Shown: positions 7,019-59,525 of the stretch, piece after piece
How the letters are laid out: every line of letters starts with the position of its first letter
Position numbering within the stretch: position 1 is the first letter of the stretch
Assembly: GCF_040958095.1 (NCBI RefSeq)
Contig: NC_091216.1
Coordinates: forward strand, 8,106,573 to 8,170,572
Direction: 5' to 3'
From: Procambarus clarkii
Lineage: Eukaryota; Arthropoda; Malacostraca; Decapoda; Cambaridae
DNA length: 64,000 bases
The notes under the pieces: generated by a model
Database searches by the model: none
The model's input: the letters and a program-made list of their open reading frames with translations, nothing else
What the model was told of the DNA's origin: nothing
Position numbers and translations under genes: made by a program

Positions 7019-7800
7019 TTAAGGAAGCTAACATGACTCTCCAATCTTGTGCTTCTCGCAAAACTAAACATAATAAATTAATATCAACAGAATTTCCTGG
7101 CTACCAATTGCCTCAACAAATGAAAGTACTTGGTGTTGGACGGGAAACTCAAAAGATTTAATAACAGTAACTATTGAAACTAACAAGTTAACAAAGAGGA
7201 AATTACTTTCACAAGTCAGTAAACTCTTCGACCCCTTAGGACTCTTAAATCCCATAACTATAAAGGGAAAATTGTTAATGCGAAAATGCTGGCTTTGGAA
7301 AGCATGATTGGGATGCTCCTCTAACCCTAAAGCTCCAGGAAAAATGGAGGTGGGAGGGAGGAAAGTTAAGGAATTGAATTCCCTTGAAACCATCCAGTTT
7401 CCTCAGAGAGGAACAAATAATGACCAACAAGTTATTCTACGCATGTCATGTGATGCTTCAGGACGAGTTTATGACACGGTAGCTAATTTGTTCAATAACA
7501 AACGATGAAATTTACTTCAAAGGCAAGAGTTGCAACAGTGAAGAAACGAGCCTTGCCACACTAACAAACATCCACTCTCAACTAATAGTGGAGTTGTCAG
7601 ATGATGCAGCAGTGCTTCAATGGGTCCAGAACAACAACAGTAAAACACCCTACGTAAGCAAAAAAGTTAAAGAAATCCAAGTCAGCTGGATACACATTAT
7701 TGTATGTTCCTGCTAAAGAAAATCCAGCTGACTACTTACCTGCGGGAGATCTGGCAACATCGAGCTGAGTTGCACTTGCGAATTTTCGGTAGTAAACTAC
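7019..7800 (+). pseudogene. BEL/Pao RT connection and RNase H part (broken)
   Basis: Continues the pol interrupted at 5534. Conceptual reading gives KLFDPLGLLNPITIKGKLLM around 7210-7280, then the FPQRGTNN and SCDASGR blocks at 7395-7470, and an RNase H-like end with QWVQNNNSKTPYVS near 7625-7660 and ENPADYL near 7720. These match the order in BEL/Pao elements. Several frame changes and stops interrupt it. Beyond 7800 no integrase is recognisable. Confidence 0.75.
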
Positions 7801-16642: not shown

Positions 16643-18440
16643 TGTCGGAAATCTGACACTAACATAGTAGATTACTAACACACAATATAATCAGCAAACC
16701 TGGTTATACTAGTTACATTAGTCTTAAAAGGATTATAGAGAATTTGAAATCCGTGACGTTATCAACCCATATATTTAGGTTCATCAAATATCCTTAAACT
16801 AACAGTCTAATGATTAAACCTAATAAAGAAGGTATTCGCTATGACTGGATCGAATATAATTATCAATAAAACTAGAGTCTACCTCTCTAATTCAATAAGT
16901 CAGAAATAGAACCATACTTCTGAAGATGCTTTGGAGGAGGAAGGCTGGCTACTCATTGTATGTAAACAGAAAGAGAGGTTTCCTTTGAGGTTTGATACGC
17001 AACCCATCCTCGACTCAAGTCCATTCCATCCAGCGGTCGACCCCACAGATGCATTCATTAATTTTTACATGCTGTTCATTGAAAACAAGAATTTTCTCAA
17101 ATATAAATTAATATATGTAATGTATTAGCATATTGTGCAGATATAGGCATAGGTTAAATTAGGTTAGGTGTTTAGGTTCTGATGGCAATTATTTATATAT
17201 GTAGTACGTGGATGAAGCATTTAAAGCATTGTGGTTCGAACAAAATTCGTCATTGAAGCGCTAGTTCCGGAAGTGTTCGAACGAAATCAGTTGTGAGTCG
17301 TGTATAAACCGTTTTTCATTCATATCAGGTGGTTTGGTGAGTGCACGGAATCACTGTTGGGTCTTTGTTTTGAGGACAGACTTCAATACGCCTCACTTCA
17401 AAGACTCTAAATTAGAAGTCGACCAACAGTGAAAACTGCCACAACGACCTCACTAACTTCAGGAGTACCTTTATATGTAGTGTTATGGGGGCAGGTGGTT
17501 GTAGTGAGAAGGCCAATAACTAAAGCCAAAGGAGTTCCTAAAATAATGGAGATTAGGTAGGCCTGGCCCTCAGGGAAGAATATTCCCAGCAATGAATACT
17601 TGTTTAACTAGAATAAAAGTCTGCCGTCTAAGGTTAATCACCTACTCCTCTCCAAACAGAATGAAAAGATACTCCTAGCTTTATCCTTATTTATTAAACC
17701 CTCTACACAACCCCCACAAATACAGAATCCAATAAATCCCTTTAACACTCTACCTTACGTTAAACTCCTTGGTCCACATAAGCAGGATACAAGGTTTACA
17801 ACTGCAAACTAGGGTAAAGATTACTTTCCTGAAGGGACACTAGCATCTTAGGTATCACAGACTTAAGCACATGTGGTCTCTCTCTGGCCACCCTAGATTA
17901 ACACTTAGGGTCCAAAAACACTGCCTTAGAGAACACCAGTAAATACATTCAAAACCCTAATCAAGGGTACGGTAATACTATAATAAGGTACTTAACTGGG
18001 TATAACAGAAATATAGAATAAGGTAAGGGAAGAGAGGAGGAGAAGGAGGAACAGCCCACAAGGACGTAAGACCGCCTGGTACCACAGCTAGCCAGAGAAG
18101 GAGGAACAAAAGTTCTCTGGAGTGCTCCCAAGACTGCTGCCGGGATGATACTAACTGATCGTACCGCCACAATCATTATAATTCTTCACAGACATTCATT
18201 ACTAGTTACATTAACAATTCTAAGAATAGCTGATATCTAGTTCAATATTATATTTAATAATCAACAAATACAGTTTGCCTGCTCTGTGAGTAACAGGATT
18301 CGTCTAACGTCTGGCAAGAGAGACGGAAACAAATCCATATCCAGGATTTAAGGAAACATGAATGTAAATGTTATTGTTATTAAATATCCTTCTCACATGA
18401 TCCAATCCTATCAATTAAAGTATAAATATTAATCATGTTG

Positions 18441-20429: not shown

Positions 20430-22450
20430 AATGCTTGTGGGTATACAATTTGTTTTTCTTGTTCCACTGTCTGTGAAGATCTAGAGATTGTCTGATTGCC
20501 GACTCTAGAACACGCAACATATAAATGTCCATGTGAGAAGCAATCCGTGTCTACATCTAAACCGCACAATTCTAAAGATTGGCCCTGAGCTTTGTTGATG
20601 TTGATTGCAAACGCCAATCGCATTGGGAAATTGCAATCTCTTAAATTGAAATGGAAAATCCGTTGGAATCATAGGAATGTGAGGAATGAGGACATCTTCA
20701 CCTTTGAAAGGTCCTGTCAAGGTTGTTGCTTCTACGACGTTGCTGAATAATTTTTTATTGCAAGCCGCGTGCCGTTGCTAAGCTTTGGCTGGTTGATATT
20801 TCGTAACATGATAATTGGCACGCCGAATTTTAATTGCAGTTCGTGCGGTGGTGGTATTCCTGGCAGATCGAGTGAATTAAAACATTCTGTTGGATAGTTA
20901 ATCGCTTCATCTGCTTCCACCACAGTGTCGACGGACTTGTATGTGACTGCCTTGCTTTGTATGTTAGACTGAATAATATTGTTAAGTTCTTAGACGTCTT
21001 TGTTCTTGGCCTCAAGAATAGCTCGTTCACTCAGCCAATCGTGATTCTTATAATTGGTTTGAATATTGGGAAATAGTTTTTCAACCAATTCTTCTTTTGA
21101 CGTCACTAAATTGTGGAAGTTATGAGGCAATGAAATTCGTCCTGAGGTCAGATCAACCGGCACGTTTCCGTTCCCAATTTCCAGAAATTGATGTGAGAAT
21201 ATCTCAGCTGATGATTCGTTTTGCAGTTGGACACGCACATTTGTAGTTAATTTTAACATATTTACGTGGCGCCACAAAGTAGAGTATTTCAGGCAAGCAT
21301 TTATTTCGTCCGCTGGTGTCGATCGAGGAACTACAGGTAATGTTTGCATGAAATCTCCTGCAAGCAATATTAATGCGTTCCCAAATAATCTGATGTTTCC
21401 ACGCTTGCAATCTTGCAATGATCGGTCAAGAGCCTCGAGTGATTTTTGTGTTCCATTGTGCATTCATCCCAAACAATAAGTTTACATTTCTGCAATACTT
21501 TTCCCATGCCGGATGCTTTGGAAATGTTGCACGTGGGAGTTTCAATGAATTGCATGTTCAATGGCAATTTCTAAGATGAAGTAGCAGTTCTTCCACGTGG
21601 TAGCAATGTTGCAGCTATTCTGGACGATGCAAGAGCTAAGGTTATGCCATTTTGGGATCGAAATGCTGCCAAAATCAATCTAATTAGAGAAGGTTTTACA
21701 GTTCCTCCTGACGCACTGTAGATTTCTCCAAAACCATTATTGATAGTCCGAATTATTTAATCGTAAATGCCTTTTCGCTCAAGCGTTAGCTTAAGAATAT
21801 TTGATTGCCCATACGACAACAGATCACCTGTGTTGTAATTTTGTTCTCGACGCAATTCTACATCGAACGAAGCAGCAGCAGATGGATTCGGTGATGGCAT
21901 TCGCAATTGATTGAGAACTTTGTTCGCGATTTATAAGCACAAATCTTCAATCATCATCAACGCTTCGTTGTAGATTTCTGCTGTGAAATTCATGTTCATA
22001 TTACAATTTTCCTTGCATATTTGACGGACAATATCTTCAGCCATGTGCGACTTGTTTCTCCCATACTCTGTTGGAGATGGAGAGCCGGTGGTCAATGATT
22101 GCAAACAATACACGAATTTGATTTGGATGTGACGTGTTGGACGTGTCATTAATGCATACATCCCAGTGTCGGTCGTTCTCCAATAAATTCAGAGCTTGAC
22201 ATGCACTACGGAAAGTGGCAAGTGCTATGCCGCTGACAAATCTCAATTGCTGGAAAGACGTTGGACCGGGGACATTTACCAACAGCTTACGAAGAAAGAA
22301 GCATTCATCCTGATTGGAATGCATTGTATACAGTCTGCCTATCGTAGTTTGTTTGAATATTCCAGGTTGTCCATCGACTCGCTCTCCTCGTTCACGTGGT
22401 TCAAATGATTTTCTACTGGCAATCCATGTGTAATACGTAGGCACTTCCGA
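20430..22450 (-). pseudogene. Helitron-type PIF1-like helicase (broken)
   Basis: Several minus-strand frames join in order into one helicase. 22,444-22,037 starts with a YYTW block and has a DGQPGIFK motif and a GPTSFQQL block. Around 21,690 a GGTVKPSLI stretch stands where the Walker A loop is expected and has lost its consensus. 21,500-21,460 has a WDECTM Walker B. 21,463-20,990 has LLAGDFMQTLPVVP. 20,923-20,732 has GVPIIMLRN and NGTRL. 20,720-20,426 has GPFKGEDVLIP, an INKAQGQSLE motif and the final LYVACSRVG. The order and motifs match the SF1 helicase domain of Helitrons. No Rep (HUH) domain is seen upstream. Multiple stops and frameshifts mean it is inactive. Confidence 0.85.
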
Positions 22451-27059: not shown

Positions 27060-29330
27060 TCATTGCTCTTCTTCAGATTTATGGCAATATTGTTTTAAGT
27101 TTTATTTTGCCACAGTTTGTACCCGGCTAACAACTCTCTTACATCCTTTACGCGAATGCTCACGTAAGACATTTTACTGTTGTTATTTTGCACCCACTGT
27201 AGTACTGCCTCATTATCTGACCATACCACCATTACTTCAAAATAAATGTTAATTAAGGTTTGGTCCGATAATGAACCAATATTTCTCCTAGCAGTAGGGC
27301 AGTTAACTCCAGTTGTGGCAATGGCCGTTTCATCAACGGTGCCACCCTGGCTTTTGATAAAAGTAAATTTGCTTGCTCATCTGTTACTAGGTAGGCTAAT
27401 GTACCGTAATCCTTTCCTGAGGTATAACAGAACACATGTTGCTTTACTGGTTGATTTTGATGTACTGTGTTCTGAGGGAACTTGATAGACTCTAGGATAC
27501 TTAGATCCCTCACTAGCCCCTGCCACTTTCCTTGTAAAGCAGGTGTTAGTGGATCATCCCAGTTTATCTTCTCTTGCCAGCATTCCTGCATTACAAACTT
27601 TCCATTTATCATTATTGGATTTAGTCCCAAGGGTTCAAAGGGTTTGCTGTCTTGGGATAGTAGTTTCCTCATTGTTAGGATGGTGGTTTCTGGCTCCACT
27701 GATTTTATTGTTAATTGGTCAAATGTTGTTTACCATGTTGTTCGACTCCTAATACTTTCATCTTCTGAGGTACTTGGTAGTCGGGAAATTCTGACTCAAT
27801 CAATTAATTCAATTTTACATTATTGGAGGCCCAAATCTGGAGAGGCATATTTGCTCCCAACAACTCTCAATATTCCTCATTATATATCTTAAGCAGTTCC
27901 TTTTCACTGCTGGTTGATCCTTGGAAGTTGTCTACATACAGATTATCGCTAATTTCAGTTTAATTTGGGCGATTGGACTTCTTCAAATGCATGTCTAAGG
28001 TTGCTTGAAGCACCAATGGTGAAGAAGCAGCTCCAAACAAAACTGAAGAAAATCTGTATGTGATTAATTCACTATTTGGATCACTAAGATCCCTTATCCA
28101 TAGGACCTTGGTGTGATTTCGGTTCTCTTTTTGGAGGCCTACCCTATGGAATGCCTTACTTATATCGGCCATGTATGCATAAGTCCCTATGTGGAACTTT
28201 AAAGCATGTCGTTCAGCCTATGTGTCAGGCTAGGGCCAGTTTGAATGCAATCATTCAAGGAGACACTATTCTGCTTGGTCTTAGCACTGCAGTTAAATAC
28301 TGTCTTCAGTAGAGAAAGTGGCTAATTTTTTCATTGCTGCATGGTGCGGCAAATAGGGTCTTTCCTTGGGGCCATCATTGGTTTCAACTTCGATAAATTT
28401 GTTATCGATTTGTTGTTGCATTATGTCAAGGTACAGTTTCAGGTTCTCAGGTTATCTGTTTAAGCACAACACTTAAGACCTTAACTGATTTTTTGCCATG
28501 AAATGATTTACTGTCAACTGAGGATGATTCAGCTACCATGATAGCCTGACCCAATATTGAAAAATCTCCTGGTAGACAACTGAGTCCAGGTATTGTTTGT
28601 ATGTCCAATCATCTGGACTAGGTTGTTCAGGGACGATGCCTAAGATGGCTCGAGCCCATATTATATGTACAGGTGGATCAAGCTCATCCTTGGAAATTAC
28701 TCTAAACTTAAGTGGTGACTGTTTTCCGCCTAGTCACACAACCTAGTTTGTCCAGTGATAAATTTATGGTAATAGTCTGCACCTCCCTGGAATCCAATGT
28801 TGGAGAGGTGACTAAATACTATTTTGTTATCAGCCAACTTAATTCCCTTTTCTTGTAGGAATTTGGCAGTTTTCCCAAGACCATGAACATACAGGTCAGA
28901 TGGGATTTTGTCTACTACAATTGCCTGTACAATTCGTGCATAAAAGCCTAAACGTACTAATGATTGGACAACTTTGTAGACTTGGGGTACTGTGTTGGTC
29001 ATGAACCCTGTTATATTTAGTTTTACCTGTGCAACAGGTTATAATTTTAAGTTATCTGCCACTTCTTTTATGATAAATTTTTGGGGGGACCCTGGGTCAA
29101 ATAACGCACGGGTGTTAACCTTGGCCATTCTGTTTTTTTATGGTAAGTAAGGCAGTTGGTAAAGTCGCATTATTCTTACACTTTGTCGATAGGACACTTA
29201 TATCCCATCATACTTTGTATTTCTGGATGGTAATGGAAGTCTCTTCCTCCACCTTGGTATTGGGGGACTTTAATTTCATGTCCTCACACAGTACTGAATG
29301 GTGCTGACCCTAATTGCACATGTTGCAGGT
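27060..29330 (-). pseudogene. BEL/Pao polyprotein remnant: protease region, RT, RNase H (broken)
   Basis: Read on the minus strand: 29,002-28,730 carries the end of the BEL/Pao aspartic-protease-like region with GGADYYHKFITG. 28,172-27,960 carries RT blocks ADISKAFHRVGL and SVLFGAASSPLVLQATLDMH. 27,699-27,253 carries the post-RT connection (PFEPLGLNPIMI) and RNase H start (KARVAPLMKRPLPQLELTAL). About 27,230-27,070 carries the QWVQNNNS block. This is the same family as the remnant at 4.65-7.8 kb, in opposite orientation. Frameshifts and stops interrupt it, and I see no integrase or gag. It might still have LTR sequence in 29.3-30.5 kb, which I could not show. Confidence 0.8.
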
Positions 29331-32279: not shown

Positions 32280-33043
32280 CTAAGACAGCTCTCCAGTCTT
32301 CGTCCTCCTGACTTTGATCTCATTAAACGTTTCCGTGTCATCTGCCCTTTTCTTCCTTATTTCTATGGTCTTCCTAAGACTCATAAACTTGGTGTTCCTC
32401 TTCGTCCTATCATTTCTTCACGGGGCTCTGTCAGCTATCCTCTTGCCTTTTGGCTCGCTAAAGCTCTCACGCCTTACCTTGGCACTTTTTCTCCTGCTCA
32501 CTTTCGTCATTCTCAGGACTTCAGAGAAAGACTGTGCATGCAGCCCTCTTGTAATATGTCTAGTCTTGAGACTTGATGACTCTCTGTTCATTAATGTTCT
32601 GCTCGATGACGTTCTCTCTTTCCTTAGACAGAAGGCGACTGAGGGCCTTCTTCCTCTCCCATCCCCCACTGACGTTTTCCTCGAACTCATTAGACTCTAA
32701 CTCTTTCTCTTTCAACGGTAAATATTACACTCTAACTTTCGGTGTCGCTATGGGTTCCCCTCTCTCCCCTGTTCTTGCTAATTTCTACATGGAATACTTC
32801 GAAACTGTTCTTCTTCCTTCTATTGATACTCGTCCCTCTCTCTGGCTTTGCTATGTTGATGACATTTTTGCTTTATGGCCTCATGACCTTAGTCTTTTCC
32901 AGCCTTCCCTCTCCTCTCTTAACAACCTGGCTCCTTCTATCCATTTCAAAGTTGAATGGGAATCTAATTCCCTCCTTCGTTTTCTTGACGTTCACGTTCG
33001 CTGCTCTGTGTCTAGGTTCACTTTCTCTATCTACCGCAAACCC
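32280..33043 (+). pseudogene. Penelope-like reverse transcriptase (broken)
   Basis: Conceptual reading gives LRPPDFDLIKRFRVICP, then YGLPKTHKLGVPLRPIIS, the signature linker of Penelope-like RTs. After a frame change it gives GVAMGSPLSPVLANFYMEYF and the catalytic box YVDDIFALW near 32,860, then FLDVHV and IYRKPC. At least two frame changes (near 32,570 and 32,700) break the protein. Both catalytic Asp codons in YVDD are retained. Confidence 0.85.
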
Positions 33044-34120
33044 TGTCGGAAAACCCGACACCATTTACTAATATCAATTCAACAGGCAGATAATATTGCT
33101 GCTGCGTTGTATAAACAAGTTACCCCATACAAAATGTAGCTTGTAGTGGAATTTTCCGTCAATAGAAAACGGGATATCATTGCCACATACTATTATAAAT
33201 TCACCAACTATTCTGTTGGGAATTATTCTTAAATACATTAGTCTTTGGACTTTTACCATCATAAAACATCTCATTTGAATTAACTTAATTATCAGTATCA
33301 AAATAAAGTAAATGTGACCCTTCTATCACTTACTGACATCTCTACAAAGTGAGGGAGGCGTGAGTGAGGAGGAAGGGGTCAGCCATTGTTGTTAAGACCA
33401 GAGGCGCAGTGGAGCAAATTCCGCTCCTATAATTTCTCTTGGACGAAGTGTGACGGAGATCAGAGTAGTGGTTTTCCATCATCAACACGCTGTAAACATA
33501 ATCAAGGAAAGTGTCTTACCGAAACCCGTTTATCTAATCATTTTTGGCCATTAATGTTAGGTAGATATTGGGCGAACCGGTTAGAATGCGAACCCGCCTC
33601 ATACTTAATTAAGACTTGGTCCTTATGATTTAATATACAGTGTTTTCTCTGATATAGCTGTCATATATTAGGATTCTGGCTTTACAGCTAGCGCCCTTTG
33701 ACAGGAACAAGAAGAGGAAGCACGACTTGATACATCAATACAAGACTTACTGGGTGATGGAAGCTTACTGGGAATACAAGACTTACTGGGTGATGGAAGC
33801 TAGCCTCAATCGAGGATAATTTGGTGTCTACATCCTAGTTATACCTGGTGGACTAAGGCTGCTGTACAATAAGATAAGGAACCTCCTCAATGCATACTAA
33901 TATATGTAGTAAATACTGTAGTTTGATTGGCTGCATATATATAAATTTAATATAACCCCCCCCCCCTAATGTGTAAGGATCGATTTGTGAGATTATTGCA
34001 GAAATACAGTCCACTTAACATCATACCAATTGCTATCGAAATATATAAATTAACGTAAATATCAATTCTATATAAATTCATATAAATTAAATAAATATAA
34101 ATCTCACAGGTCGGTTCCCA
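33044..34120. mobile_element. Solo-LTR-like insertion, 1,077 bp
   Basis: Begins tgtcggaaaacccgacac and ends ggtcggttccca, i.e. TG...CA. It is flanked on both sides by caaaccc (33,037-33,043 and 34,121-34,127), a direct repeat expected of a target duplication; LTR elements usually make 4-6 bp, so part of the seven may be chance. It splits a Penelope-like pol whose two halves adjoin once it is removed. It has no ORF. Its first bases resemble the array/insert junction at 16,643. It contains an internal direct repeat (acttactgggtgatggaagct twice near 33,745-33,800). Confidence 0.75.
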
Positions 34121-46850: not shown

Positions 46851-47749
46851 AATTATCAAGTAAGTAAGTAATTATCAAAAGAAGGCACCAAACCGGGAAG
46901 GCTATGTAAGTAAGTAAGTAAGTAATTATCAAAAGAAGGCACCAAACCGGGAAGGCTATGTAGCACCATCAAATACGCAAAATAATCAGAGGGCGCTAAA
47001 TATCACCAAGGATGCCAATACGAGAACAAAAACGCATAAGGCGAACGATATCAAAAGTATCCGAGTCACCAAGAATTCTATCGAGGGACAGGTGACAGCG
47101 AGGGGCGGTCGGAAAGCAAGACACACGCTCGTCCTGGAAGTCAGGACATTCAAGAAGGACATGCACGACCGTAAGAGGGACAATGCAACTAGGACAATAA
47201 GGAGCAGGGCGGCGCTCCATCAAGTGACCATGGGTTAAGCGAGTATGGCCAAGACGCAACCTCGCCAGAGCTGTTTCCCACCGCCGGTTACGGTGGAAGG
47301 AGGACGGCCACGAGGAAACACAACATTTAAGAGTACGTAGCTTGTTACCAGTAACAGACAACCAAGAAGCCTGCCAACGGGTAAGGACTGAGGAATGGAT
47401 AACCGGGTAAAAGTCGGAATACGGAATGCCTTTACGAGAGATGGGACAAGAGCGGACAGCTTCCTTAGCGGCAGCATCCGCACGCTCATTTAAAGACACG
47501 CCAATATGGCTGGGAACCCAACAAAACTCAACCGACTTAAATTTACTGTGAACGAGAAACAGCCAATGCTGGATCTCGACAACTACCGGATGAACTGGAT
47601 TAAAGCACCCGAGAGCCATGAGGGCACTACGAGAGTCAACAACAACCACAAAGGAAGACTGACAACGAGAAAGCAGGAGACGAAGAGCATAGAGAATAGC
47701 ATAAAGTTCCGCTGTAAAGATGCTAGTCTCCGGAGGCAAGGAAGGAAGG
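46851..47749 (-). mobile_element. 5'-truncated copy of the RNase-H LINE, head-to-tail with the full copy
   Basis: Minus-strand frame 47,739-46,996 encodes the RNase H C-terminal half and the C-terminal zinc finger. It differs from the full copy by about seven residues in about 247 (e.g. GSFN/GCFN, SSWQ/SSWP). The copy begins at the same RNase H point (within the PPETSIFTAE region) and ends in (taag)n repeats on the plus strand. The terminal 40-odd bases (attatcaaaagaaggcacc onward) occur again at about 46,871-46,906, so the 3' end itself is duplicated. Confidence 0.88.
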
Positions 47750-47821
47750 AATTATCAAAAGAAGGCACCAAACCGGGAAGGCTATGTAGCACCATCAAAT
47801 ACGCAAAATAATCAGAGGGCG

Positions 47822-50800
47822 CTAAATATCACCAAGGATGCCAATACGAGAACAAAAACGCATAAGGCGAACGATATCAAAAGTATCCGAGTCACCAAGA
47901 ATCCTATCGAGGGACAGGTGACCGCGAGGGGCGGTCGGAAAGCAAGACATACGCTCGTCCTGGAAGTCAGGACATTCAAGAAGGACATGCACGACCGAAA
48001 GAGGGACAATGCAACTAGGACAATAAGGAGCAGGGCGGCGCTCCATCAAGTGACCATGGGTTAAGCGAGTATGGCCAATACGCAACCTCGCCAGAGCTGT
48101 TTCCCACCGCCGGTTACGGTGGAAGGAGGACTGCCACGAGGAAACACAACATTTAAGAGTACGTAGCTTGTTACCAGTAACAGACAACCAAGAAGCCTGC
48201 CAACGGGTAAGGACTGAGGAATGGATAACCGGGTAAAAGTCGGAATATGGAATGCCCTTACGAGAGATGGGACAAGAGCGGACAGCTACCTTGGCGGCAG
48301 CATCCGCACGCTCATTTAAAGACACACCAATATGGCTGGGAACCCAACAAAACTCAACCGACTTAAATTTACTATGAACGAGAAACAGCCAATGCTGGAT
48401 CTCGACAACCACTGGATGAACTGGATTAAAGGACCCGAGAGCCATGAGGGCACTACGAGAGTCAACAACAACTACAAAGGAAGACTGACAACGAGAAAGT
48501 AGGAGACGAAGAGCATAGAGAATAGCATAAAGTTCCGCTGTAAAGATGCTAGTCTCCGGAGGCAAGCGACACATATAAGTGCGATCAGGAAAAACAACAG
48601 AGTAGCCAACACCGTCCGCTGACTTAGACCCATCGGTGAAGACAGAAACGGACCGGGAGTGAGAAGAAAAGTGCTCGAGGAAAAGGCGTTTTAGAACTGT
48701 AGGAGGGGTAAAAGCTTTAGTGATACGAGTCAAGGATGTACAAAACCGCGGAAGAGGGACCCTCCACGGGGGCAAAGAAGGAACAACACGAGGAGAAACA
48801 TCAGAAATACGAACGGAAAGAGAATCCTGTAGGCGAGATAACCGGACAGAAAGAGGGAGGTGGTGAAGAGGAACAGGAACCGCAGGAGGGGTAAAAGTTA
48901 AAGCACGACAGAGGCGAGAGGAAGGATGTTGCAAGGACCGCGCAAGATAGCGAAGACAGTAGCGATCACGGCGGTCCTGGAGAGACAGGAAGCCAGTGTC
49001 AACATACAAGCTAAGGACGGGAGTCGAACGAAAGGCACCAGAACTGAGGCGCAACCCAGTATGGTGCAAAGCATCAAGACGGCGAAGAGTAGAAGGAGAA
49101 GCAGACGAGTAAGCAGGGCAACCATAATCGAGCTTAGACAGGACGAGAGAGGAATGTAAAGCAAGGAGAGTGCGCCTATCTGCCCCCCAAGAAGTATGGG
49201 ACAAGACCCGAAGGAGGGTAAGGGACTTAGAGCACTCAACACGGAGGTAAGAGATATGGGGAGACCAAGACAAACGAGTGTCAAGGAATAACCCCAAAAG
49301 CTTCGCGGAATCTTTGTATTCAAGGGGATGACCATAAAGTGACAAAGAGGGACGAAGAACAACCCGTTTCCGCGTAAAAGTCATGGCACAAGTCTTAGAA
49401 GTAGAGAACTTGAAGCCATGACCTGTGGCCCAAGACGACACGGCATCAATCGCAAGTTGAAGCCGGCGTTGAAGGAGAGGCGAATCATCACCCTGACAAC
49501 AAAGGGTAAGATCATCGACATAGAGAGCGGAGAAGACACCAGAAGGAAGAGAGGAAAGAAGACCATTGAGGGCAACCAGAAAAAGAGTAGTGCTCAGAAC
49601 ACTACCCTGGGGCACACCTTCGTATTGCTGAAAAGAGGGAGAGAGAGCGGTACCAAGGCGCACCCGAAAGGAACGACGAGAGAGGAAGCTGCGGAGAAAG
49701 AGAGGGAGATGACCACGAAGGCCAAAAGAATGAAGTTGAGATAGGATATGATAACGCCAAGTGGTGTCGTAAGCCTTTTCTAGGTCAAAAAGGACGGCAA
49801 CAACGGAGGTCTTCGCAGCAAAAGCAGTACGAATATAGACCTCCAAGTTCACCAGGACATCTGTCGTGCTGCGGCACTTGCGGAAACCAAATTGAGAAGG
49901 GGAGAGGAGGTGATGGTGTTCCAGGAACCACATCAGACGAACGTTAACCATACGTTCAAAGAGTTTGCAGACACAACTTGTGAGAGCAATAGGGCGAAAG
50001 TCCTTAGGGGAAGTACCCAGAGACCCCGGTTTGCGAACAGGGAGGACAACGGCATCGAGCCAGTCCTCAGGGACTGACGACGACTCCCAGATCCGATTAT
50101 ACAGACTCAGTAAATACTGAGACGTGCTCGGAGGGAGATGGCGAAGCATCTCATAATGAATACCATCGGAGCCCGCCGCCGTAGAACCGCAGAGGGCCAG
50201 GGCAGAACGAAGTTCAGAGAGAGAGAAGGGATCATTATAGGGAAGCTGAAGATGAGTGCAGAAATCTAAAGGACGAGACTCAAGGACAGGTTTACGAAGA
50301 AGGAAAGATTGGGGAAGATGAAGACCAGAGCTAACAGAAGAAAAGTGGGAACCCAGTTCGGAAGCGACCTGCAACGGGTCCGCCACAAGAGTATCATGGA
50401 GGTGAAGGACCAGTGAAACATCGGGAACGAACTTACCCGCTATCTTGCGGATACGCTTCCAGATCTGGGCCAGAGGGGTTTCGGACGTAATTGTCGAGAC
50501 ATAAGATGCCCAACATTCACGTTTAGCCGTACGGATGGCCCTACGGGCCACCGCACTCGCTTTCCGAAAGAAAAGAAAAGAATCGGTCGTCTGCCTACGG
50601 TGGTGCTTCTTCCAGGCTGCACGCTTACAGCGGACAGCCCGAGCACAGTCCGCATTCCACCAGGGAACGCACTTCCGTGGACCCCGAGAGGAAGAGCGAG
50701 GAATAGAGCGGAGGGCAGCGTCGAAGACAGTGTCATGAAAAAGGAGGAGAGCGCGAGAGAGGGGCAGAAGGGAGAGGTCAGAGAGAGTAGCACTGAGGGA

Positions 50801-51548
50801 AAATAGGGTCCAGTCCGCCTTAGCAAACTGCCACCTAGGGAAAGAGAGGGAAGGGCGAAAAGAGAAAAAGGAAACAAGGATGGGGAAATGATCACTTCCA
50901 TGGAGGTCATCAAGAACCTGCCATGTGAAATCTAAGTAAAGAGAAGAAGAGCAGAGAGAAAGATCAAGACAAGAAAGGGTGCGAGTTCGAGAGTCCAAAT
51001 GAGTGGGCTCACCAGAATTCAGAAGAGACAGGGAAGAAGAGAGGAGAAACGGCTCAAGGAGGCGACCCCGGGTATTCGTCAGAACGTCACCCCAAAGAGA
51101 ATGACGACAATTGAAGTCACCCAGCAGGAGCACAGGCTCCGGCAAGGAGTCTAGGAGGTGTTTCAAATCAGGAAGAGAGAGCGGGACACTCGGGGGGAGA
51201 TAAATGGAACAAACTGTGTACCATTTCCCCACAAAGATACGAGCAGCAGAACAATGGAGAGGCGAAGGAAAAAGTAAAGGAACAAAGGGAACATCAGCCC
51301 GAATCAAGAGAGCAGAAGAATTAGAAGCCCCAGCAATGGCTGGGGGGGGGGGAGAGAAAGGAATAGCCACGAAAACGACCAGGACGAGCACCAAGCATCG
51401 GCTCCTGGAGACAGACACAAAGGGGCGAAAACCGCGAAACCAGAAGTTGGAGTTCGAGGAAATTGGCGTAATAACCTCGAACGTTCCATTGAAGAATGGA
51501 CAACGACGAGAAGAGAAAGGACAAAAACAGAGAACAAGGAAGAAACAA
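47822..51548 (-). CDS. LINE ORF2: endonuclease, reverse transcriptase, RNase H, zinc finger (one frameshift)
   Basis: Encodes the retrotransposition enzyme that nicks target DNA and copies RNA at the nick. The first part (51,548-51,353) is in another frame and has QWNVRGYY and CLQEPML, the start of the AP-type endonuclease. The frame changes at the 11-G run at 51,342-51,352. Numbering from 51,562 in the main frame: endonuclease GDFN 148-151 and SDHFP 223-227; RT FDLEKAYDT 592-600, GVPQGSVL 649-656 and YVDD 681-684; RNase H TDGS 976-979, Glu1010, Asp1034 and Asp1087; C-terminal CPSC 1181-1184 with His1192 and Cys1197. All catalytic residues I can check are present. About 1,240 residues is normal for this group. 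The true start codon is unclear; it follows ORF1 closely. Confidence 0.9.
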
Positions 51549-51571
51549 AGGCGAAAGACCAACAGAGCACG

Positions 51572-53497
51572 TTAAAGAATATCAGGGTCGGGATCAGGGT
51601 CAGCAAAGTCAGGGTTAGGGGGCATGGGTAAACTGAGCAAAGACGGAGGGAAGGAAACGGGAGAACAGATCAGAGGTGGGCGGGCAGGGTCCGGAGGAGG
51701 AGGAGGAGGAGGAGACAACGGAGAGGAGCAGTCAAGGACAGCAGCAGGAAGAGGGGGAGTAGAAAGAGAGGAGCGCACCCCAGCAAGAGCAGCAACCGAA
51801 AGGGAAGCAGGGGCCAAAGAAACCTCCATAGCAGGAACAGGGGGCGCAAGCACTGAAACGGGAGGGGAAGGAGCAACAGAGCCAGAAGGAGGAGCTGAGG
51901 AAGAAAGCGAAGCCTTCTTACCCGCCGGGGAAGAGGAAGGAGAGGAGCCAGGCTTACGCTTCTGACTTAAAGAGACCGGTGTCCCAGCAACTACGTACCG
52001 GGCAACGGATTCCAGTGTCTCAACAGGAGAAGCCGAACGAGAGCACACACGACGGCCGTTAGGAGAGCGATGGACATCCGCCCGCACCGACAGGCGGCGG
52101 GGAGAGCCGATAGATGGAGGAAGAGGATGGGAAGGAGGATCGGAGGGGGACGAGGAAGAAGACACAGAAGACACGACAGACCGGGTAGAAGGCAGGGGAA
52201 CCCCAGACAGAGGACCAGGAGGAGGATCCTTCGGGAGAGAACCCAAAGGGACAGAGGAGGGGGCAGTGGGCGCATCAGGGTCCAAGGCCTGGAAACGGTT
52301 GTGAGTCTGAGGAAGGCGGGAAGGACGAGGAGAGGAAGAGCGCAACATGCGAGCATAAGAGATATTAGCATAAGGCGGGAGCCGGCGAACCTGGCGCCTC
52401 GCCTCAGGAAAAGATAAACGCTCCCGGTGCTTCAAGTTGAGGACGGCTGCCTCAAGCTTGTAATGGACACACGCACGGGAGAAGGTAGGATGGGCCTCAC
52501 CGCAGTTGAGGCAACGAGCCTGGGGAGAAGCGCACTCCGACTTAGAGTGACCTTCGCCACCACACAAAGGACAGAGAGAGACAGTCCCGGAGCAGCGGAG
52601 GGCACCATGCCCAAACCTCCAGCACTTGTTGCAGAGCCGAGGAGAAGGAATGTACTCCTGGACAGAGCACCTGGCACCAGCAAGAATGACAGAGGGTGGA
52701 AGGGTCCTACCATCAAAGGTAATCTTCACAACCCGGAGGGGCTGACGGCGACTACCACGAGGGGGACGAGTAAACGTGTCCACCTGGAGAATAGAATGGC
52801 CCTGGGCAGCGAGGATATGTCGAATATCGTCGTGGCAGTCGCGTAGGTCCCGAACACCGGTCGCAACATGGGGCGGGAGCAAAATAGTGCCAACACTGGC
52901 ATTCAACTGGACGTTCTTCGAGACCCGAACGGGGGTCTCGCCAAGGCAGGATTAGGCAGCCAAGCGGGAAGCAGCATCCTGAGAAGGAGCAGCAACGACA
53001 CGCGTACCGAGACGAGTGGGGTTAAAAGTAATGGAGGCATCCACGGAATCAATGAGATGTCGATGAAGGGAGAAATCGTCAGGAGGCGCAGAATCAAGAG
53101 GGAGGAGATCAAAATATTTGGCCCACGAAGCGGGACCAAACAAGGCTTGATAGGTAGCAGAACTGGAAGGAATCGAGCGAGGGCGGCCGTGACGAAGACG
53201 GCGGTGAGAACCCCCAGAGAGAGAGGGGTTAAAAGGCGCAGTAGTAACAACTAGAGAAGGAGCCGCGCCAGGGGACGAGGTAGTCACCACTGGGGGCTTG
53301 GGGCTCGACCCAACCACAGAGGAGGGAGGGGAGCCAGGGGAAGGAGTCAGAGAGGCCAAAGGAGGAGCAAGGTCGGGGCCCAATGCAGCGGAGGCTACAG
53401 AGCCCGGTCTTCCAATACGGACCGACTCGGGGGCTTGGTCGCCCACCCCACGAGCCTGAAAAGGTAAGCCAGAAACAGCCGAAACAGGGGTTATCAT
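51572..53497 (-). CDS. LINE ORF1: gag-like nucleic-acid-binding protein (one premature stop)
   Basis: Reads as 641 codons in one frame from ATG at 53,497, broken only by a TAA at 52,952-52,954 after residue 181. The N-terminal third is Pro/Ser-rich. The middle includes a VVKITFDGRTLP stretch and then three zinc knuckles at about residues 289-343: CNKCWRFGHGALRC and CPLCGGEGHSKSEC are perfect CX2CX4HX4C, and CLNCGEAHPTFSRAC has altered spacing. The C-terminal part is Ser/Pro-rich. Such proteins bind the element RNA in a ribonucleoprotein. ORF1 ends at 51,572, about 25 bp before the endonuclease frame, so ORF2 is probably translated by re-initiation. A readthrough at the TAA cannot be excluded, but a point mutation is simpler. 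Confidence 0.88.
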
Positions 53498-54040
53498 CTT
53501 GACGAAATTACGAATTCACTCACGAATGTGCCCCCACACCCACCATGGAGCCACAATTAGAGGCAGGACACCCAACAAGACGCTATCGCCGATCTTGCCG
53601 GGGCCTCCTAGGGGTGCGTCGTGAGTATACGCCCCACAAACGCCACCTTAAGAAACCGACAGTCCGTCGAGATCGGGTTCAGTGACGAAAGGGGGATTGA
53701 CAATAAAAGGTTCCCCTCGCTCTCGACGTCGGGTACTACAGTTCTACGGGTGCAAGAGTATGCCTCCTCAAGCACCCGGGCGTCAAAATAGAAGAAGTCC
53801 AAGGGAAGAACCAGAACGAGCAAAAGGTCGGCATGAAACGGCAAGCAGATAGGAGAAGAGGGGGGAGAAAAACGAAACAGAAGGAAAAGGAAAAGATGCC
53901 CAGCAGAATTGGAGAGGACGGCAGCAGGAGCACAAGGCTAGGAAAGGACAGAGGACTGTCCCAAGGAGCATCACACTCCGACAGCCGCCCACTAAGTCCC
54001 CACACAGCGACAACGAGCTGAGCGGGGAGGGGGGAACCTT

Positions 54041-55056
54041 GGACTAGCAAGCACTGGGGCGGAAGCTAAGATCAATTTCAAATTTTTTAATGCCTCTGCA
54101 CAGTCTGATGACCACTTAAATTTAACAGCCTTCCACAACAAGTCTGTGAGAGGAGTGGCCACACTGGAAATGTTCTGACAAAAGCGTCGATAGTATGCAC
54201 ACATACCGATAAATCGTTGAATGTCCTTTTTAGACTGAAGCACGGGATACTCCAGAATGGCACTGATTTTATGTTGCCGAGGTAACACTTTTCCTTGGCC
54301 CACTTCATAACCGAGGTACGTCACTGTGCCTTGGCCAAAATGACACTTTTTTGCATTTAAGGTAAGATATACCTTTTTCAATTTTGCGAACAACTGGTGT
54401 AACCTAGCTATGTGGTCAGCCCAATTACTGTCAAAGAGCACGATATCATCTAAATACGCCCGACAATTTGGCACATTAGCAAGCAAAGAGTTCCCGAGTC
54501 TCTGGAACGTGGCAGGGGCATTACACAAGCCGAACGGTAACACTTGATACTCAAAAACACCCTTGGGTGTCACGAACGCAGTTAGTTGTTTAGCACGTTC
54601 AGTGAGTGGGATTTGATAGTACCCCCTTGAGAGATCGAATTTCGAGACATACGTGGCCTTCCCGATTTCATCGATGCAGTCCTCGAGGAGGGGCAGCGGA
54701 TAGGCATCCAGAATGGTCACCTTGTTGAGCTGCCGGTAGTCGGTGCATAATCGCCAGGAGCCGTCTGGTTTAGGGACCAAAAGGCAGGGCGAGCACCAAG
54801 CGCCCTGGCTCGGCCGGATGAGGCCGTGCTGGAGCAAGAAGTCGACCTCCTTCCGTACGATGGCCTTCTTTTCTGGACTCATCCGATAGGGTTGAAGGCG
54901 AATGGGGGTGTAGTCCGTCAACTTGACATCATGGCAAATGGCATCAGTCTGGGTCGGGACCTCCCCGAACAGACTGGAGAATTCATCAACCAACGACTGC
55001 ACCTCTTCACGTTGGGCCATCTGCAAATGGGACAGTCCCTCATCCACAGCATTCAC
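54041..55056 (-). pseudogene. Ty3/Gypsy reverse transcriptase (truncated by LINE)
   Basis: Open for 339 residues of element sequence. Motifs, in residues from 55,056: LQPYRMSP 54-61, WCSPCLLVPKPDGS 87-100, DLSRGYYQIPL 141-151 (first catalytic Asp), LPFGLCNAPATF 173-184, YLDDIVLF 201-208 (catalytic pair), YLGY 247-250 and KKDIQRFIGMCAYYRRF 276-292, ending ASAPVLASP 331-339. All catalytic Asp codons are kept and no stop occurs in this part. The next codons belong to the inserted LINE. Upstream, a 1-nt shift separates it from the integrase end, whose sequence lies less than 200 bp away. Confidence 0.92.
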
Positions 55057-55069
55057 AGAACTAGAATTA

Positions 55070-56230
55070 TTGAGAATGAGATTAGTTGGGTCCCCAGAAC
55101 ATCATCCCCTCCCTCACTGGAAATGGAAACATTGGTTAGTGCAATAGGCCTGGGGCCCTGGAACTTTTTCAGCCGATTTAAGTGTACGAGCATTACCTGG
55201 TTACGCTTGTCAGAGTGTCTCACTTTGTACGTGAGGTCCCCAGTCTTTTCTGTTACAATGTAGGGGCCCTCGTACTTGTGGGACAGTGTTCCCTAGTCGA
55301 GGCATTAATACCAGGACAGGGTCGCCAGGGTGAAATACCCGCCACTTAGCCGTATCATCGTTTCGTTCTTTCATCTTTTCTTGGGCCTTCCCATGATACT
55401 TTAGTGCCGCTGCCTTGCAGTCCTCGAGTCTCTGGTGGTGTTGCGCAAAGAAAGCCGAACCTTCGGTTAACGTTACGTTCCCTAACAGATTCTCCTGTAA
55501 CATTTGCAAGGGTCCACGAACTTTATGGCCAAAGAGTAACTCAAAAGGAGAACAACCCTGTGAACTTTGTAATCCCTCTCTAGCCGCAAACAAAACATAC
55601 GGTAAATTCTCATCCCAGAAAGTGTGGGAACTCTCGCACGATGTCTACAACATCTCCTTCAGAGTTAGATGGAAACGTTCAATTACCCCCTGACTGTGGA
55701 TGGTATGGGCTGGAAACCTTATGAGTTATTCCATGGTCCTTACAAAATTGTTAAAAAAATATCAGACTTAAAGTTAGTACCATTGTCAGTTTGCACGACC
55801 CGAGGCAGTCCAAAAGTGGAAAAAAATTGCAACATATGAGCAACAACAGTCTTTGCTCGGATGTTCCTTACAGCAAAAGCCTCTGGGTAACGAGTCGTGA
55901 TACACATCATCGTGATTAGGTAAATATTACCAGACTTAGTTCTGGGTAATGGTCCAACACAGTCCATTACCACATGAGAAAATGGTTCCTCCAGCACAAC
56001 AATAGGGCTTAGAGGAGCTTTAGGTGGAGTCTGGTTTGGTTTCCCCACCAGTTGGCACACAATACATGCATTGCAAAATTTTGCCACATCGCTTTTCAGC
56101 TAGGGCCAGAAAAAATACTTTAAGATTTTGTGATACGTAATATTAATACCATGATGTCCCCCCATAGGATCATCATGAGCAGCTGCCAAAACTCTTTCTC
56201 TATAGCAGGTCGGCAACATAACCTGGTGGA
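55070..56230 (-). pseudogene. Ty3/Gypsy integrase, located upstream of RT (broken)
   Basis: Minus-strand reading: zinc-binding HHCC region near 56,160-56,050 (GGHHGINITYHKI, then CNACIVC), with a TAG stop just before LKSDVAKF. The core (56,087-55,750) has VVMDCVGPLPRT with the first catalytic Asp and VVQTDNGTNF with the second. After a 1-nt shift at an A/T run near 55,752-55,758, HPQSQGVIERFH supplies the Glu. The C-terminal part (55,593 on) has SPFELLFGHKVRGPL and, after another shift at about 55,285, KYEGPYIVTEKTGDLTYKV, a GPY/F module, and VHLNRLKKFQGP. About 50 codons later the RT frame begins. Integrase would insert the cDNA; this copy is inactive. Confidence 0.9.
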
Positions 56231-58296
56231 CTACCTCCCACTCATTTGACAAGGAGCACTCTGTGGTCTCCATTTTCTCATCAAAATCAGATTATTGTAG
56301 TAGTACCCAGTTGCTGCGTCTACAATTTCCTCCATAGAGACGGCTGCCTCATGACAATCTGCAAGACTGGGGTCAGCTTTCTGTAACTTACTCAAGGAGG
56401 CGTCCAGACCTTGGTCAGATGCTATTGGCCGAGGCTCAACAGTGTTCTCCTCCACCTCCCCACTACTCTTGGTAGGTGGCGGTGGCAGGCTCTCCACAAT
56501 GTCCTCGGCCACGTCATCGAGTCAGGCCATGAATGTGTCCGCGAGGTCCACTTGGTTTTCACCACTCGGAAAGTTCCTCGTGTCCTCGGGATTTACCACC
56601 TTGGCAAGCACAGGGCTGCCCTTACATTTAAGTCCCATAGACCTGGCCACAGCGCACGCAGGGTACACAACATTATCCTCTGCGGCGGGTGGATCCAGGC
56701 AAACCTTAGGGGTAGGCAACATAATAGGCAGTTTGGAGTCCCCTACCTTATCTCCTGCTAAATCATTACCAACTATTACATCAACATTAGGGAAAGGTAG
56801 GTATGAAGTGACCCCGACTGTACAAACACCCTTGTGGAAATCAGATTCCAGGGTAACCTTATGGAGGGGTACTGCTCGAGTATCACTAGTGACACCACGA
56901 CCAGTACCACCTCTCCAGTGTCGAGAGTGTTGGCACCTTGCAAAGCACTCTCTAAAATTAAAGTTTGGATGGCACCGGTGTCTCGGAAGATCATCACGTC
57001 CTTCCAGGAAGAACCCTCAGACAAAAGTAGTCTCCCTTTCGATAGGAATGGGGTAAGCAAGTCCAACCAGTGTGGGTTGGAGGTCTTACTCCCTAACCCT
57101 TCCGAAGGCCTCAAGCCCTGTGTCACAACTAAAGCATTGGGTCTTTTTTCCGGGTACAGTTGCCAACAACGGCTAATAACGTGGTTTGGATGTTTACAGT
57201 GACCACAGATACGTCGGGGAGAAGAGACATTACTAACAGAATTACCCTTCGGTTCACTCTTAGGTGTCGTGGGGTTAGACAATTTAACAGGGTTAATTAT
57301 GTCTGAAACAGAAGGTGCAGTAGTTAAAGGGTTAGAATGAGCTGGTCTGGACTGGCTGTGGGTATAAGTTTTGCTACTCTGTGGGGTATAATTATTTTTA
57401 TTGAGCCTTTTGCCCGCCAACTGGTAGTTTTCTGCCAGCTTGGCCAAATCCCCTATTTTAGAATCTACCTCTATCCTACTTCTAATGTAATGTGCTACAC
57501 TGTCTGGCATATTATCTATAAATTGTTCTACTAAGACTAAATTCCTAAGTGCCTCGTATGTTTCGGCTTTAGCTGAGCAAATCCATTTATTAAACAATCT
57601 AATTTGATCATTAGCAAATTCAGTGAGCGGTTGGTTGTGAGTAGGCCTAAGGTTGCGAAAAGCTTGGCGGTGAGCTTCCGGAGTAATTTCATATGCCCTT
57701 AAAATTCGACCCCTGACTTTATCATATTCAAAACACTCGTCATCAGGCATGTTTATAAAAATATCTTGTGCTTTACCCCTAAGCCGCCCCTGCAAGATTT
57801 TCACCCACTCTTCCCTTGGCCAGTTCATGGACATGGCTAGTCTCTGAAAATGGTTGAAAAATCTTTCAGGGTCTGACTCTGAAAATTCAGGCAAGTTATG
57901 TTTTTTATCAGAATGTCTGGAGTTTGAGTCCCCAGTAGGTGGTGGTACTATTCTTGCCGCCTCATTTTTGAGCCTTTGCTCTTCCACTTTAGCATTTTGT
58001 TCTGCTACTCTGGCCTCTTGCTCTGCCAGTCTTAACTTGGCTAGTGTTAATTCTAACTATATTTCTACTAGCTACACTTTCCCCTGAACTGGGCTCATAT
58101 AAAATTGTATCACTTGGCACTAGTTCTTGGTCTATACAATGCCGTAAAATTTCATTCACCAATGTCTACTTTTTATCAGTGTCGTTTAACTCGAGACCAA
58201 ATTCCTTGCCTAACAATACTAAATTTGCTTTGGTGAGCTTCTTAATCTCTACCACTGAAGGATTCTTTGCCAGTTCCTGCATTTTAGATGCCATCA
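56231..58296 (-). pseudogene. Gmr1-like gag (SCAN-like capsid, zinc knuckle) and aspartic protease (broken)
   Basis: Likely start ATG at about 58,296 (MMASKMQELAKNPS). Stops and a shift lie between 58,170 and 58,040. The long open part (57,987-56,776) has, in its own numbering, a capsid-like region with LPEFSESDPERFF 32-44 and EEWVKILQGRLRGKAQ 59-74, and a SCAN-like stretch 95-180 with LVLVEQFIDNMPDSVAHYI. A zinc knuckle CGHCKHPNHVISRC lies at 261-274 and the protease active site RDTGAIQTLI at 335-344. The frame then changes; 56,722-56,522 and 56,512-56,231 continue toward the integrase (MRKWRP block). Gag packages RNA and the protease cleaves the polyprotein. Confidence 0.85.
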
Positions 58297-58569
58297 TTAA
58301 TAACTTTAGCTCCTAGCAAAGGAAAAAATTAAAAAATTAAAATTGGAAAAATAAAAAATTTGCACGGCCCCTAACACAAGGCCACACTAACCTCAATCGT
58401 GAAGGGATCCAGCTGGGTGTCCAGTCAGTGCAATCCTTTGCTAGATGAGCTGGGCCCTAGGCTAACACACAACTGTTCTGCGGAAACAAGAATTTTTAGT
58501 TTTGTCACTCAAGAATCTAATTTTTTTTTGTTTACAATTGAAAAGTTCCTCCCGGTCAGGCCAACCACT

Positions 58570-59525
58570 TGTTATAGAAATCGTGGGCTTGCTATGGGGG
58601 ATCTAATATTAAATGGATGTAGGGGCAGTAGTTTGCATTAAGGGTTATCAAATATGGGAGATCTCAAAGGCCCGGCCCCCACTATATAGAAATATATAGA
58701 AATAAACTTGTAGCGACTTATTACAGCAATAGTCAGCCTAGAGGTTGATCATGGATCTCTTACACAGAAAAAATGGATACTCCTTTACTAACTTACTTAT
58801 TTATTAACCCCTTAACAACCCCCCCCCCCCATATACATTCACACCAATAACAATAATTATTACTTTACCACACTATCTTACGTTAAAAGCCTTGGTCCAC
58901 TTAAGCAGGATACAAGGTTTACACTCAGAACAATGCTATGGTAAAGTACTACTAGTGAAGAGCTAGAAGCTTGAGTCAGCTTAGGGTAGGGAGACCACGT
59001 GGTTCCACTGGGACCCCTTTTAGAATAACTAGTAATACAAACACTAGGAACACATAATTCATACAAAGTATAATACTTTACACATTAGAACACGCCTATG
59101 CCAGACAATGAGAACGTTACACAGTATACTTACCTGGGGTATAAGCCCACAGAAATAAAGAAACGAGAGGAGGAGAGAAGGTTCCTTTCACCACAACAGC
59201 CAGCAGAGAAGAGCATTCCAGCGACCAGCTCAGGGCTGCCAGTAGACTGCTCAACTAATCGTACAGCAATCGTATCCCAAGTTTACTCAGATTTACTTTA
59301 CAAATGATTAGAAAGTATTAGTAAACATAGTTGGTGCCTATGTTATTATTTAATAATCAACCCCAAGCTCAGTCTTTAAATGCTCTTTGAGAAACAAGAA
59401 TAGTCTTACGTCTGGCAGGGAAGATACAAACAAATGCATCTCGTGATGCGTTTACCTACTATAAGGCAGTTTATTTAGCTAATTTTTGACCTCTGGTTTC
59501 CACTAAGGAACCCAGGGTCGTAACA
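58570..59525 (-). repeat. 5' LTR of the Gmr1-like element
   Basis: On the minus strand it begins tgttacgaccctgggttcc at 59,525, exactly where the 29-bp array stops, and by symmetry ends ctataaca at 58,570 (956 bp). The next bases, agtggttggcc, could be a primer-binding site starting with TGG, though the tRNA is not identified. A related, diverged segment lies at 17.64-18.35 kb. The 5' boundary is firm; the 3' one is inferred from the TGTTA...TAACA ends. Confidence 0.65.

What the first reader, a model, noticed from the sequence alone, without database searches (positions are those of the whole stretch)
54041..59525. Ty3/Gypsy element with Copia-like pol order and a SCAN-like gag (Gmr1-like)
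Seen: on one strand, gag with a zinc knuckle, a DTGA protease, an integrase (HHCC, D-D-E, GPYIV end), then an RT with YLDD, with the integrase end and RT start under 200 bp apart. Known: Ty3/Gypsy elements normally have RT before integrase; the Gmr1-like group is the described exception, and the vertebrate SCAN domain is thought to descend from a Gmr1-like capsid. Inference: this is an arthropod Gmr1-like lineage whose capsid region (about residues 95-180 of the open gag frame) is a possible outgroup for the SCAN fold.
Basis: partly seen in the sequence, partly recalled or inferred. Interest (0 to 1): 0.8.

Follow-up and report, generated by a model that had tools for sequence, protein, structure and literature searches.

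The report
Crustacean Gmr1-like retrotransposon with SCAN capsid
A broken copy of an abundant jumping gene in what looks like a crustacean genome has its enzymes in the rare Gmr1 order and a capsid domain recognisable as the SCAN domain of vertebrate transcription factors; the kind of element is known, but this is a clear arthropod example of both traits.

Summary
On the minus strand, window 59525-54034, lie a 5' LTR, gag, protease, integrase and reverse transcriptase, cut at the start of RNase H where a LINE begins. Gag aa 126-214 match Pfam SCAN above cut-off (38.8 bits). A genomic relative, L029, has two identical 985-nt LTRs, a 5-bp target duplication and one 1564-aa frame in the order SCAN, CCHC, PR, INT, RT, RNase H. 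Window RT and L029 INT both match Ty3 best. In trees, all 16 RT rows and 13 INT rows with INT before RT lie on one side of one branch, and the window sits with the same relatives in both: not two elements joined by chance. Three RT-INT elements of the genome fall outside; the one presumed gag tested there has no SCAN. Gmr1-like elements were reported from crustaceans in 2013 (PMC3587641) and SCAN from frog Gmr elements in 2014 (PMC4131045), so this is a new member of a known kind. Grouping with named Gmr1 elements and the SCAN outgroup claim could not be tested. In passing: a pol-less gag-protease LTR family with a SCAN capsid.

The parts
58570..59525 (-). 5' LTR, TGTTAC...TAACA, inserted in a 29-bp minisatellite
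   Evidence: aligned to the 985-nt LTRs of L029
58549..58569 (-). primer-binding-site-like stretch directly after the LTR (limits approximate)
   Evidence: tRNA identity not tested
56776..58056 (-). gag open frame (426 aa) with CA, SCAN-type CTD, CCHC and the start of PR; the gag N-terminus lies upstream in another frame
57415..57681 (-). SCAN domain (capsid C-terminal domain)
   Evidence: PF02023 E 8.1e-10, 38.8 bits, cut-off 27
57166..57207 (-). CCHC zinc knuckle
   Evidence: motif; no Pfam knuckle match
56700..57000 (-). aspartic protease: DTGA 56982-56971, VIVGND 56779-56762 in another frame (limits approximate)
   Evidence: motifs; no Pfam protease match here or in L029
55053..56291 (-). 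integrase: H2C2, rve core with D-D-E, p58_C/GPY end; one internal stop and frame breaks
54034..55101 (-). reverse transcriptase (YLDD) and first residues of RNase H, cut at 54034
46900..54033 (-). LINE (endonuclease, RT, RNase H) whose 5' end abuts the break; limits approximate

Best explanation
A degenerate, 3'-truncated copy of a Gmr1-like Ty3/Gypsy LTR retrotransposon that has at least 134 scored relatives in this (probably decapod crustacean) genome. Such an element is transcribed from its LTR and translated as one gag-pol protein in the order capsid - zinc knuckle - protease - integrase - RT - RNase H. The protease frees the parts; the capsid, whose C-terminal half is a SCAN-type domain, assembles a particle round the RNA; RT copies the RNA from a tRNA primer next to the 5' LTR; integrase inserts the copy with a 5-bp target duplication. 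The INT-before-RT order is inherited by the whole clade, not a local accident. Shown by sequence: domains, order, LTRs, target duplication, the open frame in a relative, agreement of the RT and INT trees, dN/dS well below 1. Inferred: cleavage, particle assembly through the SCAN-type domain, tRNA priming.
For: Pfam domains in order in the window and in pieces of L029, RNase H at the end. L029: LTRs of 985 nt without mismatch, ACACC on both sides, one 1564-aa frame, no N. Of 20 regions round strong SCAN hits, 7 show gag, INT, RT in this order on one strand, 1 gag then INT, 1 gag with an INT piece 7 kb further on, 11 gag only. Of 10 regions round RNase H hits, 6 have the INT tail before RT, 3 have INT after RNase H, 1 has none in reach. 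Trees: INT-RT rows on one side of a branch for RT (16 of 16, 100/99) and INT (13 of 13, 88/96); window with L029 and L030 at 100/100 in both. Ty3 is the best solved relative of the window's RT (1.4e-68) and of L029's INT (2.1e-33); in Ty3 7q5b RT (584-880) precedes IN (1088-1450). Window against L029: dN/dS 0.18 capsid, 0.45 NC-PR, 0.29 INT, 0.19 RT (largest aligned piece of each). RT search: 134 scored places, the window at 100% and 133 at 92-94%; 68 of 134 in frames of 1540-1650 aa (counted).
Against: The window copy itself is broken and has no 3' LTR or RNase H. No named Gmr1 sequence was in the trees; the outside rows are one family of this genome plus yeast Ty3, and the tree program warns of long branches. 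INT clade support is 88/96, not starred, and the place of L014 is open in the INT tree. The window's SCAN piece alone finds SCAN chains in the PDB only weakly (ZNF174 E 0.0027, ZNF24 0.079, unrelated chains from 0.14). The structure models are poor (pLDDT 54 and 65) and show no significant match to a SCAN chain.
Confidence: 0.93

Rival explanations
1. Two different Ty3/Gypsy fragments lying side by side by chance (an integrase end next to an unrelated RT).
For: The window copy has a frame change between INT and RT, and its 5' part is much less like L029 than its 3' part (53-91% against 92-98%, capsid 87-89%).
Against: L029 holds both in one open frame; 14 further loci show INT before RT; RT and INT trees agree. 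The identity step lies inside gag, not between INT and RT, and L051 is 96% identical to the window across it.
Confidence: 0.01
2. A Ty3/Gypsy lineage that took the Copia-like order independently of the vertebrate Gmr1 group, so that it works like Gmr1 but is not of that clade.
For: No named Gmr1 sequence could be put in the trees; order alone could arise twice.
Against: It shares a second trait with vertebrate Gmr elements, the SCAN-type capsid end (here; PMC4131045 for frogs, passages). Crustacean RT/RNase H fragments of 2013 were related to Gmr1 in that paper's tree (PMC3587641, passages).
Confidence: 0.06
3. The SCAN resemblance is only the general capsid-CTD fold shared by Ty3/Gypsy and retroviral capsids.
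For: Ty3 and HIV-1 capsids share this fold with SCAN (PMC6525542, passage). The window piece alone matches SCAN chains weakly; the structure models did not decide.
Against: The Pfam SCAN model passes its cut-off; a profile of 12 chosen capsids finds, at E up to 1 in the PDB, five SCAN proteins and two unrelated chains and no Ty3, Arc or retroviral capsid; the one presumed canonical-order gag tested has no SCAN match.
Confidence: 0.1

Closest known systems
Gmr1-like Ty3/Gypsy elements of vertebrates (fish, frogs)
   Same: INT before RT; SCAN match in gag (over half of frog Gmr elements, PMC4131045; SCAN protein between 5' LTR and pol in five of 41 protein-coding zebrafish elements, PMC8672886, not named Gmr1 there); one gag-pol protein of 1506-1634 aa in tetraodontiform fish (PMC11117352), 1564 here. 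Passages read.
   Different: Crustacean host; LTRs of 985 nt against 337-518 in those fish; RT and INT not compared directly here
Crustacean Gmr1-like fragments GyRex4, Gychoro2, GyMaja1, GyLiva4 (PMC3587641)
   Same: Crustacean, related to the Gmr1 clade by RT/RNase H
   Different: Studied as RT/RNase H, with a separate INT fragment (GyRex5) that does not overlap GyRex4, so the order was not shown; no SCAN in the passages read
Yeast Ty3
   Same: Best solved relative of the window's RT and of L029's INT
   Different: RT before IN; its capsid was not among the matches of the profile
SCAN domain of amniote zinc-finger proteins
   Same: Capsid C-terminal domain matches PF02023 over positions 1-86 of 90
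   Different: Here part of a gag with an N-terminal capsid half and a CCHC knuckle, not joined to C2H2 fingers

Membership tests
Gmr1-like Ty3/Gypsy | Integrase upstream of RT within pol | tested here: met
   window, L029 in one frame, 14 further loci
Gmr1-like Ty3/Gypsy | RT and INT of Ty3/Gypsy, not Copia, descent | tested here: met
   best PDB match of window RT and of L029 INT is Ty3
Gmr1-like Ty3/Gypsy | RT and INT fall in one clade together | tested here: met
   within this genome plus yeast Ty3; INT support 88/96
Gmr1-like Ty3/Gypsy | Clusters with named Gmr1 elements | not testable with these tools
Gmr1-like Ty3/Gypsy | SCAN-type capsid C-terminal domain (reported for frog Gmr elements) | tested here: met
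   window 38.8, L029 35.2, L009 61.7, L007 60.1, L027 54.4, L014 32.2 bits, cut-off 27; a partial copy in L034 reached 26.2, below it; gags of the L031 and L038 groups not obtained
Gmr1-like Ty3/Gypsy | Two LTRs and target-site duplication | tested here: met
   L029; the window keeps only the 5' LTR
SCAN domain (PF02023) | Score over the curated cut-off | tested here: met
SCAN domain (PF02023) | SCAN fold, domain-swapped dimer | tested here: inconclusive
   single-sequence models, pLDDT 54 and 65, five helices in the CTD model; no significant match
Outgroup to vertebrate SCAN | Crustacean capsid branches outside vertebrate Gmr1 gag plus SCAN | not testable with these tools
   no vertebrate Gmr1 gag sequences held

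The most novel reading that the evidence does not exclude
In all three crustacean lineages where both could be read (window/L029, the L009 group, L014), the INT-RT order goes with a SCAN-type capsid end, so the SCAN signature predates the vertebrates (or crossed phyla with the elements); and one lineage is exploited by pol-less gag-protease LTR elements that keep a nearly unchanged SCAN capsid so as to enter its particles.
Probability: 0.45. Interest if true: 0.55.

Novelty: new member of a known kind. Interest (0 to 1): 0.4.

Why it matters
The SCAN domain of mammalian zinc-finger proteins is thought to come from a Gmr1-like capsid, and the published SCAN-bearing elements seen here are from vertebrates. 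A protostome genome with at least 150 scored SCAN matches (and over 20,000 unscored candidates) in several lineages supplies sequences with which to ask when the SCAN signature arose and whether it is tied to the unusual pol order. For the order itself it shows directly, in one frame, what non-overlapping fragments left open for crustaceans in 2013.

Tried and rejected

Rows dropped: from the INT tree I took out L033, L034 and L011, and a length limit left out L037 and L022; L035 has no INT in reach. L018 was left out of alignment A1 after stops, whose 12 rows are a choice from the loci in hand; an L038 piece was left out of a Pfam call. Of the 134 places only the window, L029 and L030 were read.

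Full report
WHAT IS THERE. The element lies on the minus strand. Its 5' LTR begins at 59525 with TGTTAC, directly after the 29-bp minisatellite at 59.4-60.4 kb, and ends at about 58570 with TAACA. A primer-binding-like stretch follows. The gag frame 58056-56776 holds a capsid, whose second half (aa 126-214, window 57681-57415) matches Pfam SCAN at E 8.1e-10 and 38.8 bits against a cut-off of 27, a CCHC knuckle and the start of a DTGA protease. Integrase (H2C2, rve, p58_C) spans 56291-55053 and RT 55101-54034, where RNase H has just begun. At 54034 the element stops and a LINE with endonuclease, RT and RNase H begins. No 3' LTR or RNase H remnant of this copy was found in the window by DNA search with L029; two old LTR-like pieces lie near 17.7 and 18.3 kb.

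THE HOST. The window is a stretch of a 4.03-Gb genome in 2308 contigs. That genome has nine matches to the crustacean neurohormone family, all over the cut-off, five of them within 57 kb on one contig.

COPIES AND ORDER. A search with the RT piece scored 134 places, all covering the whole query: the window at 100%, 133 at 92-94% (24,899 loose first-look candidates, so 134 is a lower bound). By my count 68 of 134 lie in open frames of 1540-1650 aa; withheld bases read N and may count as open, and only L029 and L030 were checked for N (none). L029 has LTRs at 48-1032 and 6220-7204, 985 nt with no mismatch, ACACC on both sides, and one frame of 1564 aa with, in order, SCAN (35.2 bits), H2C2, rve, p58_C, RVT_1, RNase H. 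The window aligns to it from 59002 to 54034 at 89.5%, and L030 to the window at 94.6% over 57510-54034.

A SECOND AND THIRD LINEAGE. Twenty regions of about 10 kb were taken round strong SCAN hits. With window pieces as queries, 7 of 20 show gag, INT, RT in this order on one strand (L009, L012, L014, L015, L017, L020, L026); L011 has gag then INT; L022 has gag and an INT piece 7 kb further on, perhaps of another element; 11 have gag only. Of 10 regions round RNase H hits, 6 have the INT tail before RT, 3 have INT after RNase H (L032, L036, L040), 1 has none in reach.

TREES. RT: 21 rows, 16 with INT-RT order on one side of a branch, support 100/99, in 100% of bootstrap trees. INT: 17 rows, 13 with INT-RT on one side, 88/96. 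The window groups with L029 and L030 at 100/100 in both, next to L031 and L039; the L009 group is further out in both; L014 joins that group at 89/89 in the RT tree and is open in the INT tree. The rows outside are one canonical family and yeast Ty3, so the sampling is thin, and the program warns of long branches. The single presumed gag tested from the canonical family (L041, upstream of L032) has no Pfam match at E up to 1.

SCAN. The window piece alone finds ZNF174 at E 0.0027 and ZNF24 at 0.079 in the PDB, then unrelated chains from 0.14. A profile of 12 chosen capsids (A1) finds at E up to 1 five SCAN proteins (ZNF24 2.9e-6, PEG3 4.3e-5, ZNF174 1.8e-4, ZNF42 1.1e-3, ZSCAN10 0.62) and two unrelated chains at 0.66 and 0.76; Ty3, Arc and retroviral capsids do not appear. 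Profile against the ZNF24 stretch gives 95% probability. Structure prediction from single sequences was too weak to decide. In the genome the SCAN model has 20,862 first-look candidates, and 150 of 150 scored pass the cut-off; Retrotrans_gag has 2,176 candidates, and 31 of 150 scored are listed at E up to 0.001.

SELECTION AND MOSAIC. Window against L029: dN/dS 0.18 in the capsid, 0.45 NC-PR, 0.29 INT, 0.19 RT, each over the largest aligned piece, as for proteins under constraint. Synonymous divergence is uneven: 0.396 in the capsid against 0.088-0.186 downstream, and DNA identity steps from 53-91% in the LTR, leader and gag N-terminus through 87-89% in the capsid to 92-98% from there on. L051 is 96% identical to the window over 58713-56357, across the step, so the mosaic is shared by at least one other copy; recombination between co-packaged RNAs is the likely cause (inference).

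LITERATURE (passages read, not whole papers). Gmr1-like elements are Gypsy elements with INT upstream of RT (PMC3587641, PMC8220671, PMC6238403). Four crustacean members were named in 2013; GyRex4 (RT/RNase H) and GyRex5 (INT) did not overlap, so the order was not shown (PMC3587641). SCAN was found in over half of frog Gmr elements (PMC4131045), and SCAN genes are held to descend from a Gmr1-like capsid (PMC3406341, PMC4592553, PMC3424704). A search for 'SCAN domain', 'retrotransposon' and 'crustacean' listed three papers, none about a crustacean gag by its listing; the listings and the passages seen gave no other report of a SCAN gag in an arthropod. This is no proof that none exists, and subscription papers are mostly not held.

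VERDICT. Confirmed, and known in kind: a new, well-documented crustacean member of the Gmr1-like group, subject to the tree with named Gmr1 elements that could not be made. What is added is the INT-RT order in one frame with LTRs in a probable crustacean, the SCAN-type capsid over the curated cut-off in three lineages of one genome, and a pol-less gag-protease family noted in passing.

Noticed in passing
L010, L016, L018, L023, L024, L025, L027 (seven of eleven gag-only loci): LTR-bounded elements (LTR pairs 93-99.8% identical) with SCAN capsid, CCHC and DSGA protease but no INT or RT match; in place of pol they carry about 300 aa with a membrane-like stretch and no Pfam match, aligned in nine other loci. 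Looks like a pol-less family that borrows enzymes; the LTR of the pol-bearing L015 is 84% like that of L016.
   Followed up: partly
L027 against 20 other loci, capsid part: Capsid/SCAN dN/dS is 0.02-0.12 in the 14 comparisons that gave a ratio (6 saturated); NC-PR 0.16-0.58, unknown part 0.43-0.79. Synonymous divergence is often far higher in the capsid than beside it (L018 1.38 against 0.45 and 0.37), but not in all pairs (L015, L019). Gag exchange or constraint on a shared capsid are both possible.
   Followed up: partly
window 57.2-59.5 kb: The window copy is mosaic: LTR and gag N-terminus far from L029, NC to RT close to it; L051 shares the step.
   Followed up: partly
L046 (upstream part of the L031 element): A LINE, by eye of the same kind as that at the window's break, sits in the protease region of another INT-RT element.
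   Followed up: no
window 17686-17819 and 18251-18332: Two pieces 75% and 71% identical to the L029 LTR: probably an old LTR remnant.
   Followed up: no
window 27253-27729 (-), 20990-21463 (-), 32570-33139 (+): Pao retrotransposon peptidase, a PIF1-like helicase (Helitron-like by recall) and a further RT fragment below its cut-off.
   Followed up: no
window 34.7-46 kb, 59.4-60.4 kb, 61.9-62.4 kb: Long minisatellites that read as long repetitive open frames in several frames and are unlikely to be genes (for the last two, the first by eye).
   Followed up: no
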